Positions 31,229-35,912 of a stretch of DNA of 35,912 nucleotides are shown here, one piece after another. Under the pieces are notes generated by a model. It was given only the letters and a program-made list of their open reading frames with translations, was not told the DNA's origin and ran no database searches. The translations under genes and the position numbers were made by a program. The stretch covers positions 1 through 35,912 of the IMG/VR virus record IMGVR_UViG_3300047994_000427; one strand, 5' to 3'. The DNA comes from a virus. Position 1 is the stretch's first letter, and every line of letters starts with the position of its first letter.

Positions 31229-31993
31229 ATGCTATACTTAAATGGTCAACCGTTGAATGTTACGGTATTCCCAGACAAAACTTCTCAAGTTTGGAAACTT
31301 CCAGACTCTGTTCTCTACAAAACAAATTACATCGAGATCACTTGGCGCTTTGAACACGAAGGCGAGTTTCTGCAACTTGCTCAGCTCAAAGATCTCCTCG
31401 ATCTTCATGAACTAGGCGCCGAACTGCGCGTCACATATCTTCCCTACGGTCGTCAGGACAAAGAAGTTAGTAACACTGCTACCTTTGCTCTTCGCACTTT
31501 CGCCAGACTTCTCAATTCTCTTTCCTTCGACAGAGTTATCGTTCACGATCCCCACAGTGATGTGGCCTTGGAATTAATTAACTACTGTACGGCGATTTAT
31601 CCAAAAGTACAGTTGAACGAGATCATTAAAGGCACTGGTACGAATCTGCTCTGCTACCCAGACAAGGGCGCGCTTCGCAAGTACAGCGAGCAATACGAAT
31701 TCTATCGAGCCTTCATTTATGGTGAAAAAGTCCGCGATCAACTTACGGGTAATATCACAAGTTACAAAGTTATCGGAGATTGTGTCGGTAAGACCGTTCT
31801 CATCGTAGATGATATCTGCGATGGCGGCGCGACCTTCAAATTGTTGGCCAAAGACCTCTTGGCCGCAGGAGCTAAAGAGGTCAACCTCTTTGTTACTCAT
31901 GGGATCTTCTCAAAAGGAGTAAGAACCCTACTCGAATCAGGCATCAACCGCGTGTTTACCGAAGATGGTGAAGTGAGTAAGCACGCAAAATAA
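31229..31993 (+). CDS. prs: Ribose-phosphate pyrophosphokinase-like (Prs or ADPR-PP synthetase)
   Basis: The 254-residue protein is of type I phosphoribosyltransferase fold. It has the flexible-loop motif PYGRQD (72-77), VHDPHSD (105-111) and the PRPP/phosphate-binding motif VLIVDDICDGGATF (190-203). It is shorter than cellular Prs (about 310). Prs makes PRPP from ribose-5-phosphate. In phage NARP1 pathways a Prs homologue (Adps) instead pyrophosphorylates ADP-ribose. Being next to a NAMPT homologue, either activity would serve NAD+ rebuilding; sequence alone does not decide. AAAGGA lies eight bases before the ATG. Confidence 0.85.
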   Translation: MLYLNGQPLNVTVFPDKTSQVWKLPDSVLYKTNYIEITWRFEHEGEFLQLAQLKDLLDLHELGAELRVTYLPYGRQDKEVSNTATFALRTFARLLNSLSFDRVIVHDPHSDVALELINYCTAIYPKVQLNEIIKGTGTNLLCYPDKGALRKYSEQYEFYRAFIYGEKVRDQLTGNITSYKVIGDCVGKTVLIVDDICDGGATFKLLAKDLLAAGAKEVNLFVTHGIFSKGVRTLLESGINRVFTEDGEVSKHAK

Positions 31994-32010
31994 TTCATAT
32001 AGGAGATTAT

Positions 32011-33513
32011 ATGAAAAAGAATCTGAAGAAAAAAATATCCCTGTCTGCAATGCTTCTGTGCGATTTCTACAAAGTTTCGCACCGTGAAATGTACCCTGAA
32101 GGAACAGAAACCGTTTATAGCACTTGGACGCCTCGCGCTTCGCGCATGAAAGACGTCGATCAGGTCGTGGTTTTTGGTAACCAGGCTTTCGTCCGTAAAT
32201 ACCTCGTTGATTTTTTCAATGAGAATTTCTTTGGTCGCGAAAAAGAAGAAGTGGTCGCGGAATACGCTCGTTTCATCCGTTGCACTCTTGGTGTGGAAAA
32301 ACCTTCTACCCAACATATCGAGGACCTTCATGATCTTGGATATCTCCCGCTTCTCATCAAGGCCGTACCAGAAGGAACGGTCGTTCCACTTCGCGTACCC
32401 GCTTTGACCATCCAGAATACGAATCCTAAGTTTTTCTGGCTGACCAATTACATCGAAACCTTGGCTTCTTGTGAACTCTGGCCTTGTTACACGGCAGCTA
32501 CGATTGCTCGCGAGTACCGCAAGCTTCTGGGTAAGTACGCTACTGAAACGGTCGGAAATACCGATTTTGTTCCCTTCCAGGGGCATGACTTCGCTATGCG
32601 CGGTATGCTTGGTATGGAAGGTAGCCTTCTCACCGGCATGGGTCATATGACTGAATTTGCCGGTACCGACAACTGTCCAGCCATTACGGCCATCGAGTAC
32701 TACTACGATGCTAACATTGAAAAGGAGCTGATCGGCACGTCCGTTCCTGCTACCGAGCATTCGATTCAGTGCGCCTACGGCGATGACATGGTCTACTTGC
32801 GCAGAATGCTCAGCGAGGTTCATCCATCAGGCATCGTTTCAATCGTCTCGGACGGCTATGACTTCTGGGATGTCATTGCTCGCGTGGTTCCAGCTTTGAA
32901 AGCGGAAATTATGGCTCGTAAGGGTCATCCACTTGGGCTCGATAAGGTCGTTATCCGCCCTGACTCTGGAGATCCAGTTCTGATCGTCTGCGGCGATCCA
33001 TCGGCTCCTAAGGGTTCCTTGGAATATAAAGGTGCTGTTGAAGCCCTGTACGACATCTTCGGTGGAACTCTGACTGAAAAGGGCTATAAAATGCTCGATA
33101 GCCATATCGGTCTTATCTATGGAGACGCCATTACGTTGAATCGTGCCAAAGAGATCATGGAGCGCCTGAAAACCAAAGGGTTTGCCTCGACGAACGTGGT
33201 TTTTGGCATCGGATCATACACTTACCAGTACAACACTCGCGATACGTTTGGTTTCGCCCTGAAATCGACCGCTTGCGTGATCAACGGTAAGGAAAAGCAG
33301 ATCTTCAAATGTCCAAAGACTGATGATGGCATTAAGAAGTCTCAGCGCGGACGTGTTATCGTCTATAAGGACGGTAACGGACAGATCACTTTCAAGGACG
33401 GCTTCCCTCTTGGAACCGAACTGAATGCGGATCTCTTGCAGCCTATCTTTAAGGACGGCGAACTCCTTAATCAGGTTAATTTCGCTACTATTCGCGAAAG
33501 GCTGAAAAAATAG
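32011..33513 (+). CDS. nadV: Nicotinamide phosphoribosyltransferase-like (NadV or Namat)
   Basis: The 500-residue, full-length NAMPT-family protein has conserved blocks DFYKVSHREMYPEGTETVYSTW, GHDFAMRGM, PATEHS, SDGYDFWDV, VIRPDSGDP, and GIGSYTYQYNTRDTFGFALK near the C-terminus. It joins nicotinamide to PRPP to form NMN, or, in NARP1, to ADPR-PP to form NAD+ directly. It follows the Prs-like gene by 17 bp with AGGAGA, so the two form an operon. In phages such pairs restore NAD+ emptied by host defence NADases or supply phage growth. Confidence 0.9.
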   Translation: MKKNLKKKISLSAMLLCDFYKVSHREMYPEGTETVYSTWTPRASRMKDVDQVVVFGNQAFVRKYLVDFFNENFFGREKEEVVAEYARFIRCTLGVEKPSTQHIEDLHDLGYLPLLIKAVPEGTVVPLRVPALTIQNTNPKFFWLTNYIETLASCELWPCYTAATIAREYRKLLGKYATETVGNTDFVPFQGHDFAMRGMLGMEGSLLTGMGHMTEFAGTDNCPAITAIEYYYDANIEKELIGTSVPATEHSIQCAYGDDMVYLRRMLSEVHPSGIVSIVSDGYDFWDVIARVVPALKAEIMARKGHPLGLDKVVIRPDSGDPVLIVCGDPSAPKGSLEYKGAVEALYDIFGGTLTEKGYKMLDSHIGLIYGDAITLNRAKEIMERLKTKGFASTNVVFGIGSYTYQYNTRDTFGFALKSTACVINGKEKQIFKCPKTDDGIKKSQRGRVIVYKDGNGQITFKDGFPLGTELNADLLQPIFKDGELLNQVNFATIRERLKK

Positions 33514-33552: not shown

Positions 33553-33561
33553 AGAAATGGT

Positions 33562-33622
33562 CAGGGTCGAATGGTAAGGGTTATTCGTTTAAAATAAACC
33601 CCTTTCCAACACACTTATCCTG
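33562..33622 (+). ncRNA. Y-RNA-like hairpin in Ro 5' leader (Y0)
   Basis: About 61 nt. The base stem is CAGGGU/AUCCUG, followed by the conserved strand GGGUCGAAUGG with AAGGGUUAUU and, on the 3' side, CCAACACACUUAUCC. An inner GGGUU/AACCC stem closes a short A/U loop. It has no tRNA-like module. CCTTTT follows, and the Ro start codon is 20 nt downstream. Ro-binding consensus elements are shared with the downstream copies. Confidence 0.6.
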
Positions 33623-33641
33623 CCTTTTAATCGGAGATCAT

Positions 33642-35219
33642 ATGAAGAATTATTCGAGCGCTATTACTGGTCCTACTCCTCAAACTCAACCCCTTTTCGG
33701 TCGTACCGATCAGGTGAAGAATAACGCTGGCGGCTATGTTTTTGAAGTTACGCCAAAAGATCGTCTTGCACGCTTCCTTTTGATCGGATCTGAAGGTGGC
33801 ACGTACTACGTTAATGAGCAAAAGCTGACTCAGGACAATGCTACCAATATCATTTCCTTGATTAAAGCTGACGGTCTCGGTGTTGTCGCTACGGTGACCG
33901 ATTTTGCCGTCAACAATCGCGCTCCTAAGGCCGATCCAGGTCTTTTCGTCCTTGCTCTTTGCGCAACTTACGGTGATTCGGCTACGAAAACCGCTACGTA
34001 CAATGCGATCACCAAAGTGTGTAAGACTTCTACGCACCTCTTCACGTTCCTGGCAAACGTCCAGAACCTGCGCGGCTGGTCTCGTGGCCTTCGTAAGGGT
34101 GTTGCAAAGTTTTACACCGATAAGGAAGCTGGCCAAGTTGCCTATGCGGTCGTGAAGTATCGTAACCGTGCTGGTTTTACGCACCGCGATGCTCTGCGCC
34201 TTTCTCACGCCAAGGCCACTTCTCCTGAAATGAACGATATTTTTGCCTACGTTACGGCAAAAGATCTTGCCGAATTGGACCTTACTAAAGGTAACTCTTT
34301 GATCAATGCTTTTGAGACTGCTCAAAAGACCGAAAACACCAAAGAGCTGGTCGAACTGATCAGCGAGTATCGTCTGACTTGGGAAATGGTGCCTAATACG
34401 CAAATCAACAAGCCTGAAGTCCTCCAGGCCCTCCTTGAGAACATGCCTTTGACGGCGCTTCTTCGCAATTTGAACCGTTTTTCATATAACGGACTTACGG
34501 ACGGTAACACGGATACGGTGAAAACCATCGTTAAGCGTCTTAAGGATAAAGAATACGTTCAAAAGAGCGGTATTCACCCTCTGAACGTCGTTAATTCGAT
34601 GCGCACCTACTCTAATGGTCGCGGAGACAAGGGCGATAAGACCTGGACTCCTAACCAAAAGATCGTAGACGCCCTGAGCGATACTTACGAAGCTGCCGTT
34701 CAAGCTCTGCCTTCTACTGGCAAGAACATTCTTGTGGCCGTTGATGTGTCTGGATCCATGCGCAGCCCTGTCGCTGGTTATCAGATGAGCGCTGTCCAAG
34801 TCGGAAACGTTCTTGGCGTCACCATGCTTAAGGCTGAAGACGAAGCCGAACTGATTTGGTTTGACACTTCCATTCATACGCCTAAGATCGGTCGTCGCAC
34901 CGGTCTGGATACGGTCCTTAGCCAAGACACGCCTGGTGGCGGAACGGATTGTTCTCTCGCCTTCATGCATGCTCTTAACACTAAGATCAAGTACGATACT
35001 ATCATTATTTTGACTGATAATGAAACTTGGTCTGGTCGTGGCCATGGCTTGGAGCGCTTGAACGAATATCGTCGCAAGGTGAATAAGGACGTTAAGGTTA
35101 TTGAAGTAGCGATGGTTTCAAATCCTTATGGAAATCTTCCTGCTGATGATAAAAATTTGTTGCGCGTAGTTGGGTTCGATGCTAGTGTTATTGATGTGAT
35201 CCAGAGTTATCTGGAATAG
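33642..35219 (+). CDS. rsr: TROVE/Ro60 family protein (Rsr)
   Basis: The 525-residue protein has an N-terminal TROVE HEAT-repeat ring (about 1-350), including the segment FLLIGSEGGTYYV typical of Ro60. The C-terminal vWA domain (about 360-525) has an intact MIDAS: D368-V-S370-G-S372, T435 in GGGTDCS, and D459 in LTDNE. Ro proteins bind Y RNAs on the outer ring surface and free single-stranded 3' ends in the cavity. In bacteria Rsr, with a Y RNA and PNPase, takes part in RNA decay and rRNA maturation. GGAG precedes the ATG. Y-RNA-like elements flank it on both sides. Length matches Ro60. Confidence 0.93.
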   Translation: MKNYSSAITGPTPQTQPLFGRTDQVKNNAGGYVFEVTPKDRLARFLLIGSEGGTYYVNEQKLTQDNATNIISLIKADGLGVVATVTDFAVNNRAPKADPGLFVLALCATYGDSATKTATYNAITKVCKTSTHLFTFLANVQNLRGWSRGLRKGVAKFYTDKEAGQVAYAVVKYRNRAGFTHRDALRLSHAKATSPEMNDIFAYVTAKDLAELDLTKGNSLINAFETAQKTENTKELVELISEYRLTWEMVPNTQINKPEVLQALLENMPLTALLRNLNRFSYNGLTDGNTDTVKTIVKRLKDKEYVQKSGIHPLNVVNSMRTYSNGRGDKGDKTWTPNQKIVDALSDTYEAAVQALPSTGKNILVAVDVSGSMRSPVAGYQMSAVQVGNVLGVTMLKAEDEAELIWFDTSIHTPKIGRRTGLDTVLSQDTPGGGTDCSLAFMHALNTKIKYDTIIILTDNETWSGRGHGLERLNEYRRKVNKDVKVIEVAMVSNPYGNLPADDKNLLRVVGFDASVIDVIQSYLE

Positions 35220-35224
35220 TTTTA

Positions 35225-35353
35225 TTCGGGTCGCTGGTAAGTCGATTATTGCATTCGGAGCACGAAACGTGGGTTCGAATCCCACCCTGGCTTTCGGGCC
35301 AGGTCGTCTAGTGGTTAGGACGCGTAAAAACTCGACTCCAATATTTATCCGAA
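35225..35353 (+). ncRNA. Y RNA with permuted tRNA module (Y1)
   Basis: About 129 nt, starting 5 nt after the Ro stop. Base stem UUCGGGU/AUCCGAA, conserved CGCUGG, inner stem AGUCGA/UCGACU and 3' CCAAUAUUUAUCC. The distal module is T-arm GUGGG-UUCGAAU-CCCAC (35269-35285), then a 7 bp acceptor-like hairpin CCUGGCU-UUCG-GGCCAGG (35286-35303), then D-arm GUC-UAGUGGUUAG-GAC (35306-35321) with the G18-G19 pair. A small UUCG/CGAA hairpin sits where a variable arm would be. This is the layout of bacterial YrlA RNAs. Confidence 0.85.
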
Positions 35354-35372
35354 TTTGTTCTTTGAAATTTGT

Positions 35373-35504
35373 GTGGGTCGTAGATAGTAGGTTAATTACA
35401 GGAACTGCGGGTCGCTGGTGCAAATCCAGCCCTCTCGACATGTCGAGAGGTAGCTCAGTTAGTTAGAGCAGCAGTATAAAACCCTACTATCGCTTTTTAT
35501 CCAC
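35373..35504 (+). ncRNA. Y RNA with near-perfect permuted tRNA module (Y2)
   Basis: About 132 nt. Base stem GUGGGU/AUCCAC and 9 bp inner stem GAUAGUAGG/CCUACUAUC. The distal module reads, in order: ACUGC (half of an anticodon-like stem), five-base variable loop GGGUC, T-arm GCUGG-UGCAAAU-CCAGC (35414-35430), closed acceptor CCUCUCGA-CAUG-UCGAGAGG (35431-35450), UA, D-arm GCUC-AGUUAGUUA-GAGC (35453-35469), A, and GCAGU closing the anticodon-like stem. The anticodon end is opened into the Ro-binding stem. Confidence 0.87.
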
Positions 35505-35509
35505 CAATT

Positions 35510-35613
35510 ATCTGTCGCTGGCGACTGCAAGCTCGGCGGCAAGGATGTCGGAAACCACATCCTGTGAACCTGAGATGAATTCTTGCAGCTCTCAGGAGGA
35601 CCAAATTTCAGAT
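35510..35613 (+). ncRNA. Y-RNA-like element with pseudoknot candidate (Y3)
   Basis: About 104 nt. Base stem AUCUG/CAGAU with GUCGCUGG on the 5' side and CCAAAUUU on the 3' side, matching the shared Ro-binding pattern. Inside are hairpin GGAUGU/ACAUCC (35547-35566 region), CUGCAAG (35525-35531) complementary to CUUGCAG (35582-35588), and CCUGAGA/UCUCAGG around the latter, so a pseudoknot or switch is possible. There is no tRNA module. The last 3 nt overlap the next element. Confidence 0.55.
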
Positions 35614-35740
35614 GGGTCGAATGAAAACGGTTATTCTCTACCGTTGGGAACTTAGCATAACGGTTAATGCGCCTGGAGTCAGATCCAGGAGATGAGGGTT
35701 CGAATCCCCAGCACAAGTCGTTTTCAAATTATTATCCATC
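35611..35740 (+). ncRNA. Y RNA with tRNA-like module in normal order (Y4)
   Basis: About 130 nt. Base stem GAUGGGU/AUCCAUC, inner pairing GAAAACG/CGUUUUC and the conserved GGUUAUU. The distal module is UA-GCAU-AACGGUUA-AUGC (D-arm with GG), G, CCUGGA-GUCAGA-UCCAGG (anticodon-like arm with a six-base loop) and a T-loop UUCGAAU on a short GGG/CCC stem. The acceptor side is open and joins the Y stem through ACUU/AAGU. It is not a functional tRNA because no acceptor stem or CCA exists. Confidence 0.75.
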
Positions 35741-35753
35741 GTAATCTTGTTAT

Positions 35754-35824
35754 TGAGCGGGTCGCTTTCCCTAGGGTTATTTATCGAAACAAACAATCCC
35801 TTGGCTAACTCTTTATCACGCTCA
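35754..35824 (+). ncRNA. Minimal Y-RNA-like hairpin (Y5)
   Basis: About 71 nt. Base stem UGAGCG-GGU pairs with AUC-CGCUCA around one bulged A. CGCUUUCC replaces the usual CGNNGG. The inner stem CCUAGGG/CCCUUGG has a U-U mismatch, and GGGUUAUU is in the loop side. There is no tRNA module. It resembles Y0 in size and shape. Confidence 0.6.
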
Positions 35825-35834
35825 CTTTTATTTT

Positions 35835-35912
35835 ACGGGTCGAAGGTTATTCGTTAATCTACACTGGAACGCCCCATAAGGGCTTTGGTCACCAGCTAAG
35901 ACTGGTGAGGGG
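35835..35912 (+). ncRNA. Y RNA, 3' end outside window (Y6)
   Basis: It starts ACGGGUCGAAGGUUAUUCG, with all 5' consensus elements. It continues with hairpins GCCC/GGGC and CACCAG-CUAAGA-CUGGUG (six-base loop, like the anticodon-like arm of Y4). The window ends before any T-arm or the 3' strand, so it is partial. Confidence 0.6.

What the first reader, a model, noticed from the sequence alone, without database searches (positions are those of the whole stretch)
35225..35504. Two circularly permuted tRNA mimics with closed acceptor stems
In Y1 and Y2 the tRNA parts run T-arm, acceptor hairpin capped by a tetraloop (UUCG or CAUG), then D-arm, the reverse of gene order in a tRNA. Y2 keeps a five-base variable loop, an 8 bp acceptor, U8-A9, a 4 bp D-stem and an anticodon-like stem that opens into the Ro-binding stem. 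The anticodon end and CCA are absent, so they cannot be charged. They could be substrates or decoys for tRNA-modifying enzymes or tRNA-targeting defence nucleases.
Basis: partly seen in the sequence, partly recalled or inferred. Interest (0 to 1): 0.82.

Follow-up and report, generated by a model that had tools for sequence, protein, structure and literature searches.

The report
Phage Y RNAs wearing permuted tRNAs
Beside its Ro60 gene this phage encodes a row of small RNAs built on a Ro-binding stem, two of which carry a tRNA read in swapped order; this mimicry is a known trait of bacterial Y RNAs, but related loci show that many such RNAs keep an anticodon arm and that evolution has repeatedly opened the same tRNA-plus-Y circle at a different point.

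Summary
Y1 (35224-35354) and Y2 (35373-35504) follow a phage Ro60 gene. Each holds, in order, a T-arm, an acceptor stem closed by a tetraloop (7 bp + UUCG; 8 bp + CAUG), and a D-arm. A covariance model made only from real tRNAs permuted in silico ranks Y1 first of 104 kb (E 1.5e-20) and finds Y2 (E 5e-8). Rfam's YrlA model aligns end to end with both (E 1e-6, 4e-4), below its cut-off. So they are Y RNAs of the known YrlA class, whose solved structure (6CU1) is published as a circular permutation of tRNA. Anticodon-nuclease inhibition by YrlA has also been proposed in print.

New, as far as I can see: (1) the phage carries an array of at least six Y units, one (Y3) with a tRNA in normal order. 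(2) "Anticodon absent" is not general: 37 of 84 permuted modules keep an anticodon hairpin (6.4 expected), perhaps Y1 too. (3) Thirty other Ro60 loci hold the opposite isomer, a linear tRNA with a closed Y stem inserted before the anticodon arm, some with encoded CCA; no locus has both, and the Ro60 tree needs about 10 switches. I could not read the primary Y RNA papers, so priority is unproven.

The parts
33642..35219 (+). Ro60 orthologue (TROVE + Ro60 vWA domain, 525 aa)
   Evidence: Pfam TROVE E 5.8e-38, vWA_Ro60 E 2.8e-37; 30-39% identical to Ro-like proteins of actinophages
33561..33623 (+). Y0: minimal Y unit upstream of Ro (GGGTCG...GGTTATT...TTATCC, no tRNA head)
   Evidence: shared motif and fold; counterparts before Ro in L011 2119-2185 and L012 3416-3482
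35224..35354 (+). Y1: Y RNA with permuted tRNA head
   Evidence: Rfam YrlA 29.1 bits E 3.8e-4 full length; R1 63.8 bits E 1.5e-20; Y unit with 6 bp terminal stem
35250..35262 (+). Y1 candidate anticodon hairpin UGC-AUUCGGA-GCA (anticodon position UCG)
   Evidence: matches the class in which 37/84 modules keep such an arm; disfavoured by 3.5 kcal/mol in folding
35269..35285 (+). Y1 T-arm
   Evidence: GUGGG UUCGAAU CCCAC, pairing probability about 0.95
35286..35303 (+). Y1 acceptor stem closed by UUCG (7 bp)
   Evidence: pairing probability 0.85-0.99; tetraloop
35306..35321 (+). Y1 D-arm (GUCU AGUGGUUA GGAC)
   Evidence: pairing probability 0.84-0.90
35373..35504 (+). Y2: Y RNA with permuted tRNA head, YrlA-like with an opened anticodon stem
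   Evidence: Rfam YrlA 37.8 bits E 1.2e-6 full length; R1 28.3 bits E 5.1e-8
35404..35408 (+). Y2 anticodon-stem 3' strand ACUGC (pairs with 35471-35475)
   Evidence: pairing probability 0.85-0.95
35414..35430 (+). Y2 T-arm with loop UGCAAAU (no U55)
   Evidence: pairing 0.99; alone among 103 modules in lacking U55
35431..35450 (+). Y2 acceptor stem closed by CAUG (8 bp)
   Evidence: pairing 0.78-1.0
35453..35469 (+). Y2 D-arm (GCUC AGUUAGUUA GAGC)
   Evidence: pairing probability about 0.48
35611..35740 (+). Y3: Y unit whose head is a tRNA in normal (unpermuted) order, acceptor stem degenerate
   Evidence: tRNA part 35651-35711: Rfam tRNA 26.5 bits E 0.0032, R2 29.2 bits E 4.6e-6 in 716 kb; homologues L011 4231-4293 and L012 5461-5531 exceed Rfam's cut-off
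35755..35823 (+). Y4: minimal Y unit
   Evidence: GAGCGGGTCG...TTATCACGCTC fold and motif
35833..35912 (+). Y5: start of a long Y unit cut off by the contig end
   Evidence: aligns with 5' ends of roughly 220-265 nt units in L011-L014

Best explanation
Y1 and Y2 are phage-encoded Y RNAs of the YrlA class, partners of the Ro60 protein encoded just before them. The basal stem with the GGGUCG and GGUUAUU elements and the terminal UUAUCC strand is the Ro60-binding part. The head is a tRNA fold in which the Y stem occupies the anticodon side and the acceptor stem is sealed by a tetraloop. The most likely working is the one described for bacterial Y RNAs: the Y stem sits on the Ro60 ring while the tRNA-shaped head is a handle recognised by proteins that grip the tRNA elbow and acceptor stem (modification enzymes, or an effector such as PNPase). 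Shown here: sequence, folds, covariation, gene neighbourhood, family match. Inferred from studied relatives: Ro60 binding, modification, effector tethering. Not known: what benefit the phage gets.
For: Ro60 gene adjacent and on the same strand. End-to-end Rfam YrlA matches. Independent permuted-tRNA model. The same module lies beside Ro60 genes of known actinophages, in many of 80 viral Ro60 contigs and in many of 80 bacterial Ro60 loci. Covariation in all three helices. tRNA tertiary contacts kept in 103 modules: U8 103, A14 100, U54 103, U55 102, C56 103, A58 102, GG in the D-loop 96. Acceptor caps: 48 tetraloops, of which 27 are UNCG or GNRA (4.7% expected, p 1e-23). Literature: YrlA modified by TruB/DusA and tied to PNPase (PMC8394870); 6CU1 is a circular permutation of tRNA (PMC11472068).
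Against: Both Rfam scores are below the family's cut-off of 69, although the YrlA matches at actinophage Ro60 loci also fall below it. No expression or binding data. Y2's R1 score alone is within the range produced by tandem tRNA genes. Y2 lacks U55, so TruB could not act on it as on YrlA. No phage function is established.
Confidence: 0.8

Rival explanations
1. The array is a counter-defence device: Y RNAs displaying tRNA elbows and, in some, anticodon loops bind or distract anticodon nucleases and other tRNA-targeting defences.
For: Published suggestion that the YrlA tRNA-like domain competitively inhibits an anticodon nuclease (PMC7790460). 35 of 42 anticodon hairpins, not selected for it, have U33; 22 different anticodons occur among them. 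The phage's NAMPT-like and PRPP-synthetase-like genes lie next door and recur in L012; such a pair resembles phage NAD+ restoration genes (my recollection).
Against: Y2 has no anticodon loop and Y1's is weakly predicted. Bacterial genomes carry the same RNAs. Salmonella YrlA was not cut by the nuclease in question, although that does not exclude inhibition.
Confidence: 0.2
2. Y1/Y2 are permuted tRNA genes whose transcripts are circularised and cut at the acceptor loop to give working tRNAs, as in red algae.
For: The gene order equals that of permuted tRNA genes (PMC3978253). Sister RNAs exist in acceptor-open form, some with encoded CCA.
Against: Caps are mostly short and often very stable tetraloops. 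Y2 has no anticodon loop. The Y ends pair with each other and carry the Ro60 motif. Bacteria lack the splicing endonuclease used in algae and archaea (established knowledge).
Confidence: 0.04
3. Chance or decayed tRNA genes: T- and D-arms left over from tandem tRNA genes beside Ro60.
For: Tandem real tRNAs do give R1 scores up to 30.5 bits.
Against: Y1 scores 63.8 bits; acceptor hairpins covary and are capped by enriched tetraloops; each module sits inside a Y scaffold with its own terminal stem.
Confidence: 0.02

Closest known systems
YrlA (Rfam RF02553; Salmonella YrlA, PDB 6CU1)
   Same: Ro60-adjacent Y RNA; order T-arm, closed acceptor hairpin, D-arm; in Y2 the anticodon stem opens into the Y stem
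   Different: Scores below the Rfam cut-off; Y1 may keep an anticodon hairpin; Y2 lacks U55; part of an array of at least six units in a phage
Ro-like proteins and Y RNAs of mycobacteriophages and Streptomyces phages
   Same: Phage Ro60 plus permuted modules nearby
   Different: Ro60 only 30-39% identical; those examined hold one to three modules near Ro60; no linear-tRNA head seen in them
Circularly permuted tRNA genes of algae and archaea (PMC3978253)
   Same: 3' half precedes 5' half, joined at the acceptor end
   Different: Those are processed through a circle to mature tRNAs; here the acceptor is sealed and the other ends form a Ro60-binding stem
tmRNA, including permuted tmRNA genes
   Same: tRNA-like domain joined to another functional part, with permuted forms known
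   Different: No mRNA-like part or tag; partner is Ro60
Animal Y RNAs
   Same: Basal stem with a GGUCCGA-like element and UUAU after the stem (from memory)
   Different: No tRNA head

Membership tests
YrlA-class bacterial Y RNA | encoded next to a Ro60 orthologue | tested here: met
   Ro60 33642-35219, same strand
YrlA-class bacterial Y RNA | Y stem with conserved Ro60-binding sequence made by the RNA's two ends | tested here: met
   GGGUCG...GGUUAUU / UUAUCC with terminal stem; binding itself not testable
YrlA-class bacterial Y RNA | tRNA-like head with T-arm, closed acceptor stem and D-arm in that order | tested here: met
YrlA-class bacterial Y RNA | reaches the Rfam RF02553 gathering score (69 bits) | tested here: not met
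   37.8 and 29.1 bits; YrlA matches at actinophage Ro60 loci, 26-52 bits, also miss it
YrlA-class bacterial Y RNA | uridine at T-loop position 55 (TruB site) | tested here: inconclusive
   present in Y1, absent (G) in Y2
YrlA-class bacterial Y RNA | bound by Ro60, modified by tRNA enzymes, tethers an effector | not testable with these tools
   needs experiments
Permuted tRNA gene giving mature tRNA | anticodon loop and processable acceptor ends | tested here: not met
   Y2 has no anticodon loop; acceptor sealed in both
Ro60 (TROVE) protein | TROVE domain plus vWA domain with the DxSxS metal site | tested here: met
   VDVSGSM in the alignment

The most novel reading that the evidence does not exclude
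YrlA-class RNAs are, at root, whole tRNAs with a Ro60-binding hairpin inserted between the D-arm and the anticodon arm. The functional object is the circle: evolution has repeatedly opened it either at the Y end (acceptor sealed, as in Y1/Y2) or at the acceptor end (Y stem sealed, sometimes with encoded CCA). The acceptor-open form may be end-processed or even charged, and phages and bacteria may use the sets as tRNA-shaped, anticodon-bearing partners or decoys on Ro60 rings.
Probability: 0.35. Interest if true: 0.85.

Novelty: new variant of a known kind. Interest (0 to 1): 0.6.

Why it matters
That Y RNAs mimic tRNA by circular permutation is known; why they do so is an open question. Natural pairs of both isomers, switching about ten times on the Ro60 tree and never found together in one locus, say that the arrangement of tRNA body and Ro60 stem matters and the position of the ends does not. 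This makes the question testable: the two isomers from sister loci can be swapped. Retained anticodon arms and encoded CCA ends also make specific, cheap tests possible (charging, end processing, nuclease inhibition) and may explain some Y RNAs annotated as odd tRNAs in phage genomes.

Tried and rejected
Close DNA relatives in phage records: none. A single-protein scan of viral contigs found nothing; a Ro60 alignment found 345. Permuted-tRNA alignments A1-A3 misregistered and were replaced by length-normalised tRNAs (A4). Twister-sister, AS1726 and other Rfam hits in the region have E 0.03 or worse, taken as chance. Promoter and terminator scans at background. Several long acceptor-to-acceptor matches first looked like Y insertions in the anticodon loop; reading them showed that the insert lies before the anticodon arm, which follows intact in many. 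Some R1 matches are tandem joins of acceptor-open units (e.g. L076 361, L108 6693). They were removed before the loci were labelled, but are still among the 84 modules (at least two). L134 and L095 remain ambiguous. The primary Y RNA papers (Chen 2014, Wang 2018, Sim and Wolin 2018) are not held. No known family was found for the long Y5-type module.

Full report
WHAT IS THERE. The window is one IMG/VR virus fragment of 35,912 bases. Its major capsid protein is 53% identical to that of Myxococcus phage Mx1. It has 14 ordinary tRNA genes on the minus strand. At the right end, on the plus strand, lie a PRPP-synthetase-like gene, a NAMPT-like gene and a Ro60 orthologue with TROVE and vWA domains. 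Behind Ro60 runs a row of units that begin GGGTCG, continue with GGTTATT or a variant after the stem, and end TTATCC or TTATCA, each complete one closed by its own terminal stem: Y1, Y2, Y3, Y4 and the start of Y5, cut by the contig end. A further minimal unit, Y0, lies before Ro60. The finding concerns Y1 and Y2.

CHECK OF THE OBSERVATION. To test it without circularity I took genuine tRNAs from the window and from Ro60 phages, permuted them in silico (T-arm, acceptor stem joined by a random tetraloop, D-arm) and built covariance model R1. Over 104 kb Y1 is the best match (63.8 bits, E 1.5e-20); Y2 has 28.3 bits, E 5.1e-8. Because neighbouring real tRNA genes can imitate the pattern up to 30.5 bits, Y2 rests also on Rfam's YrlA model, which covers it end to end (37.8 bits, E 1.2e-6; Y1 29.1 bits, E 3.8e-4), and on its 8 bp sealed acceptor stem. 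ARAGORN and Rfam's tRNA family at its cut-off see nothing there, as expected for permuted order.

WHAT IT IS. R1 finds the same module at Ro60 loci of known actinophages, in many of 80 viral contigs and in many of 80 bacterial Ro60 loci. On 77 matches all three helices covary (alignment fitted to the structure, so this leans towards it, and a few of the 77 are tandem-tRNA joins). In 103 modules the tRNA elbow residues are almost invariant, and the acceptor caps are enriched in UNCG and GNRA tetraloops (27 of 48, p 1e-23). This is the YrlA class of bacterial Y RNA. Its permutation is known: PMC11472068 uses 6CU1 against tRNA as its main example of a circularly permuted superposition. Its modification by TruB and DusA and its link to PNPase are summarised in PMC8394870. 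The nuclease-decoy idea is in PMC7790460. Y1 and Y2 by themselves are therefore new members of a known kind.

BEYOND THE FINDING 1: ARRAYS AND A LINEAR HEAD. The closest relatives (L011, Ro60 77% identical; L012, 70%) carry seven or eight Y units each, with the minimal Y0 unit kept before Ro60. L083 carries at least eleven. A motif-and-stem scan over all loci fetched by then finds 71 units on the Ro60 strand against 14 on the other. In the window Y3, L011 4207-4323, L012 5438-5559 and L083 1679-1814 the Y scaffold bears a tRNA in normal order. Rfam's tRNA family scores 47.1 (L012) and 45.5 bits (L011), above its cut-off; model R2 of unpermuted tRNAs gives 29.2 bits for the window copy and 48.0 for L083. 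From the sequences, these copies have lost the anticodon loop signature or the acceptor stem in different combinations, so they are not evidently working tRNAs.

BEYOND THE FINDING 2: ANTICODON ARMS. Of 84 modules with a Y signature, 37 have a 7-nt-loop hairpin with U33 and a purine at 37 at the place of the anticodon arm, against 6.4 +/- 2.5 (maximum 16 of 500) in shuffles. At least two of the 37 (L076, L108) belong to acceptor-open units (see below), which does not change the picture. Without requiring U33, 42 hairpins show U33 in 35, a pyrimidine at 32 in 34, a purine at 37 in 36 and A38 in 32; stem pairs 29-41 to 31-39 use all Watson-Crick types, while 28-42 mostly does not pair. Y1 belongs here by position (UGC AUUCGGA GCA), but its nearest-neighbour fold prefers another hairpin by 3.5 kcal/mol, so this is a candidate only. 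Y2 is of the other sort, with the anticodon stem opened into the Y stem.

BEYOND THE FINDING 3: THE OTHER ISOMER. Searching the same loci with R2 gave tRNAs about 120 nt long. They are linear tRNAs with a perfect 7 bp acceptor, D-arm and T-arm, in which a closed Y hairpin (3' strand, short loop, 5' strand) is inserted after the D-arm; an anticodon arm often follows. A separate rule-based scan finds 38 on the Ro60 strand and none on the opposite strand in 1.33 Mb; 37 hold the Ro60 motif. In an alignment of 14, all seven acceptor pairs vary on both sides with every cell paired (acceptor pairing was part of how they were found). Desulfonema magnum has several in a row before Ro60, followed by ACCA or GCCA. 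The circular order of parts is the same as in the YrlA form; only the opening differs. Of 170 Ro60 loci, 71 carry the Y-open form, 30 the acceptor-open form, 69 neither by these rules, and none both. On a FastTree of the 101 labelled Ro60 proteins the state changes at least 10 times, 4 forced by well-supported branches. I read the Y-open members of three sister pairs by eye (L017 beside L036, L027 beside L023, L071 beside L073) and their terminal stems are genuine.

HOW IT MOST LIKELY WORKS. Shown: folds, covariation, neighbourhood, family. Inferred from studied relatives: the Y stem binds the Ro60 ring; the tRNA-shaped head is a handle for tRNA-binding proteins, among them modification enzymes and perhaps an exonuclease. 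That the position of the ends is free while the arrangement of parts is kept fits a handle whose shape matters. What a phage gains is open: effector capture, protection of RNA, or counter-defence. I place the counter-defence reading at about 0.2.

LIMITS. All evidence is computational. The primary Y RNA papers could not be read, so I cannot say that the acceptor-open isomer and the anticodon arms are undescribed, only that searches of 5.39 million open papers showed me no mention and that the introduction of a 2023 paper on natural RNA permutations does not list Y RNAs (PMC10085705). Loci were chosen by Ro60 similarity and flanks are limited to 3.5 kb, so counts are lower bounds. The tree is a quick one.

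Noticed in passing
L094 2066-2188, 2463-2591 (Desulfonema magnum), and about 2215-2357 and 2640-2760: Row of linear tRNAs with inserted Y hairpins and encoded ACCA/GCCA ends before Ro60; in the last one the Y hairpin seems to sit in the D-loop.
   Followed up: partly
L023 3081-3391, L076 270-527, L108 6461-6965, L119 5875-6131 and others: Acceptor-open Y-tRNA isomers next to Ro60 in phages, Myxococcota, Chloroflexota and Armatimonadota.
   Followed up: yes
35611-35740; L011 4207-4323; L012 5438-5559; L083 1679-1814: Y scaffold carrying an unpermuted tRNA.
   Followed up: partly
35833-35912; L011 4411-4629; L012 5782-6041; L013 5334-5552; L014 5061-5325: Long Y unit (about 220-265 nt) with a conserved unknown structured head (CTAGTACAATGRCCAACTARAA-GGTCAGGA); no Rfam match.
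   Followed up: partly
35507-35605: Hairpin-rich stretch between Y2 and Y3, possibly a diverged Y unit (ATCTGTCGCTGG ... CCAAATTTCAGAT); absent from L011.
   Followed up: no
31229-33513: PRPP-synthetase-like and NAMPT-like genes before Ro60, kept in L012; they recall phage NAD+ restoration pairs that counter NAD-depleting defences (from memory).
   Followed up: partly
L009 2217-2295; L003 5690-5778: Public phage records annotate tRNA-Thr and tRNA-Leu over stretches that match YrlA: probable Y RNAs mistaken for tRNAs.
   Followed up: no
L083 1147-3442: At least eleven Y units upstream of one phage Ro60 gene.
   Followed up: partly
35414-35469: Y2 has G at T-loop position 55 and AG in place of GG in the D-loop, so both partners of the usual 18-55 contact have changed.
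   Followed up: partly
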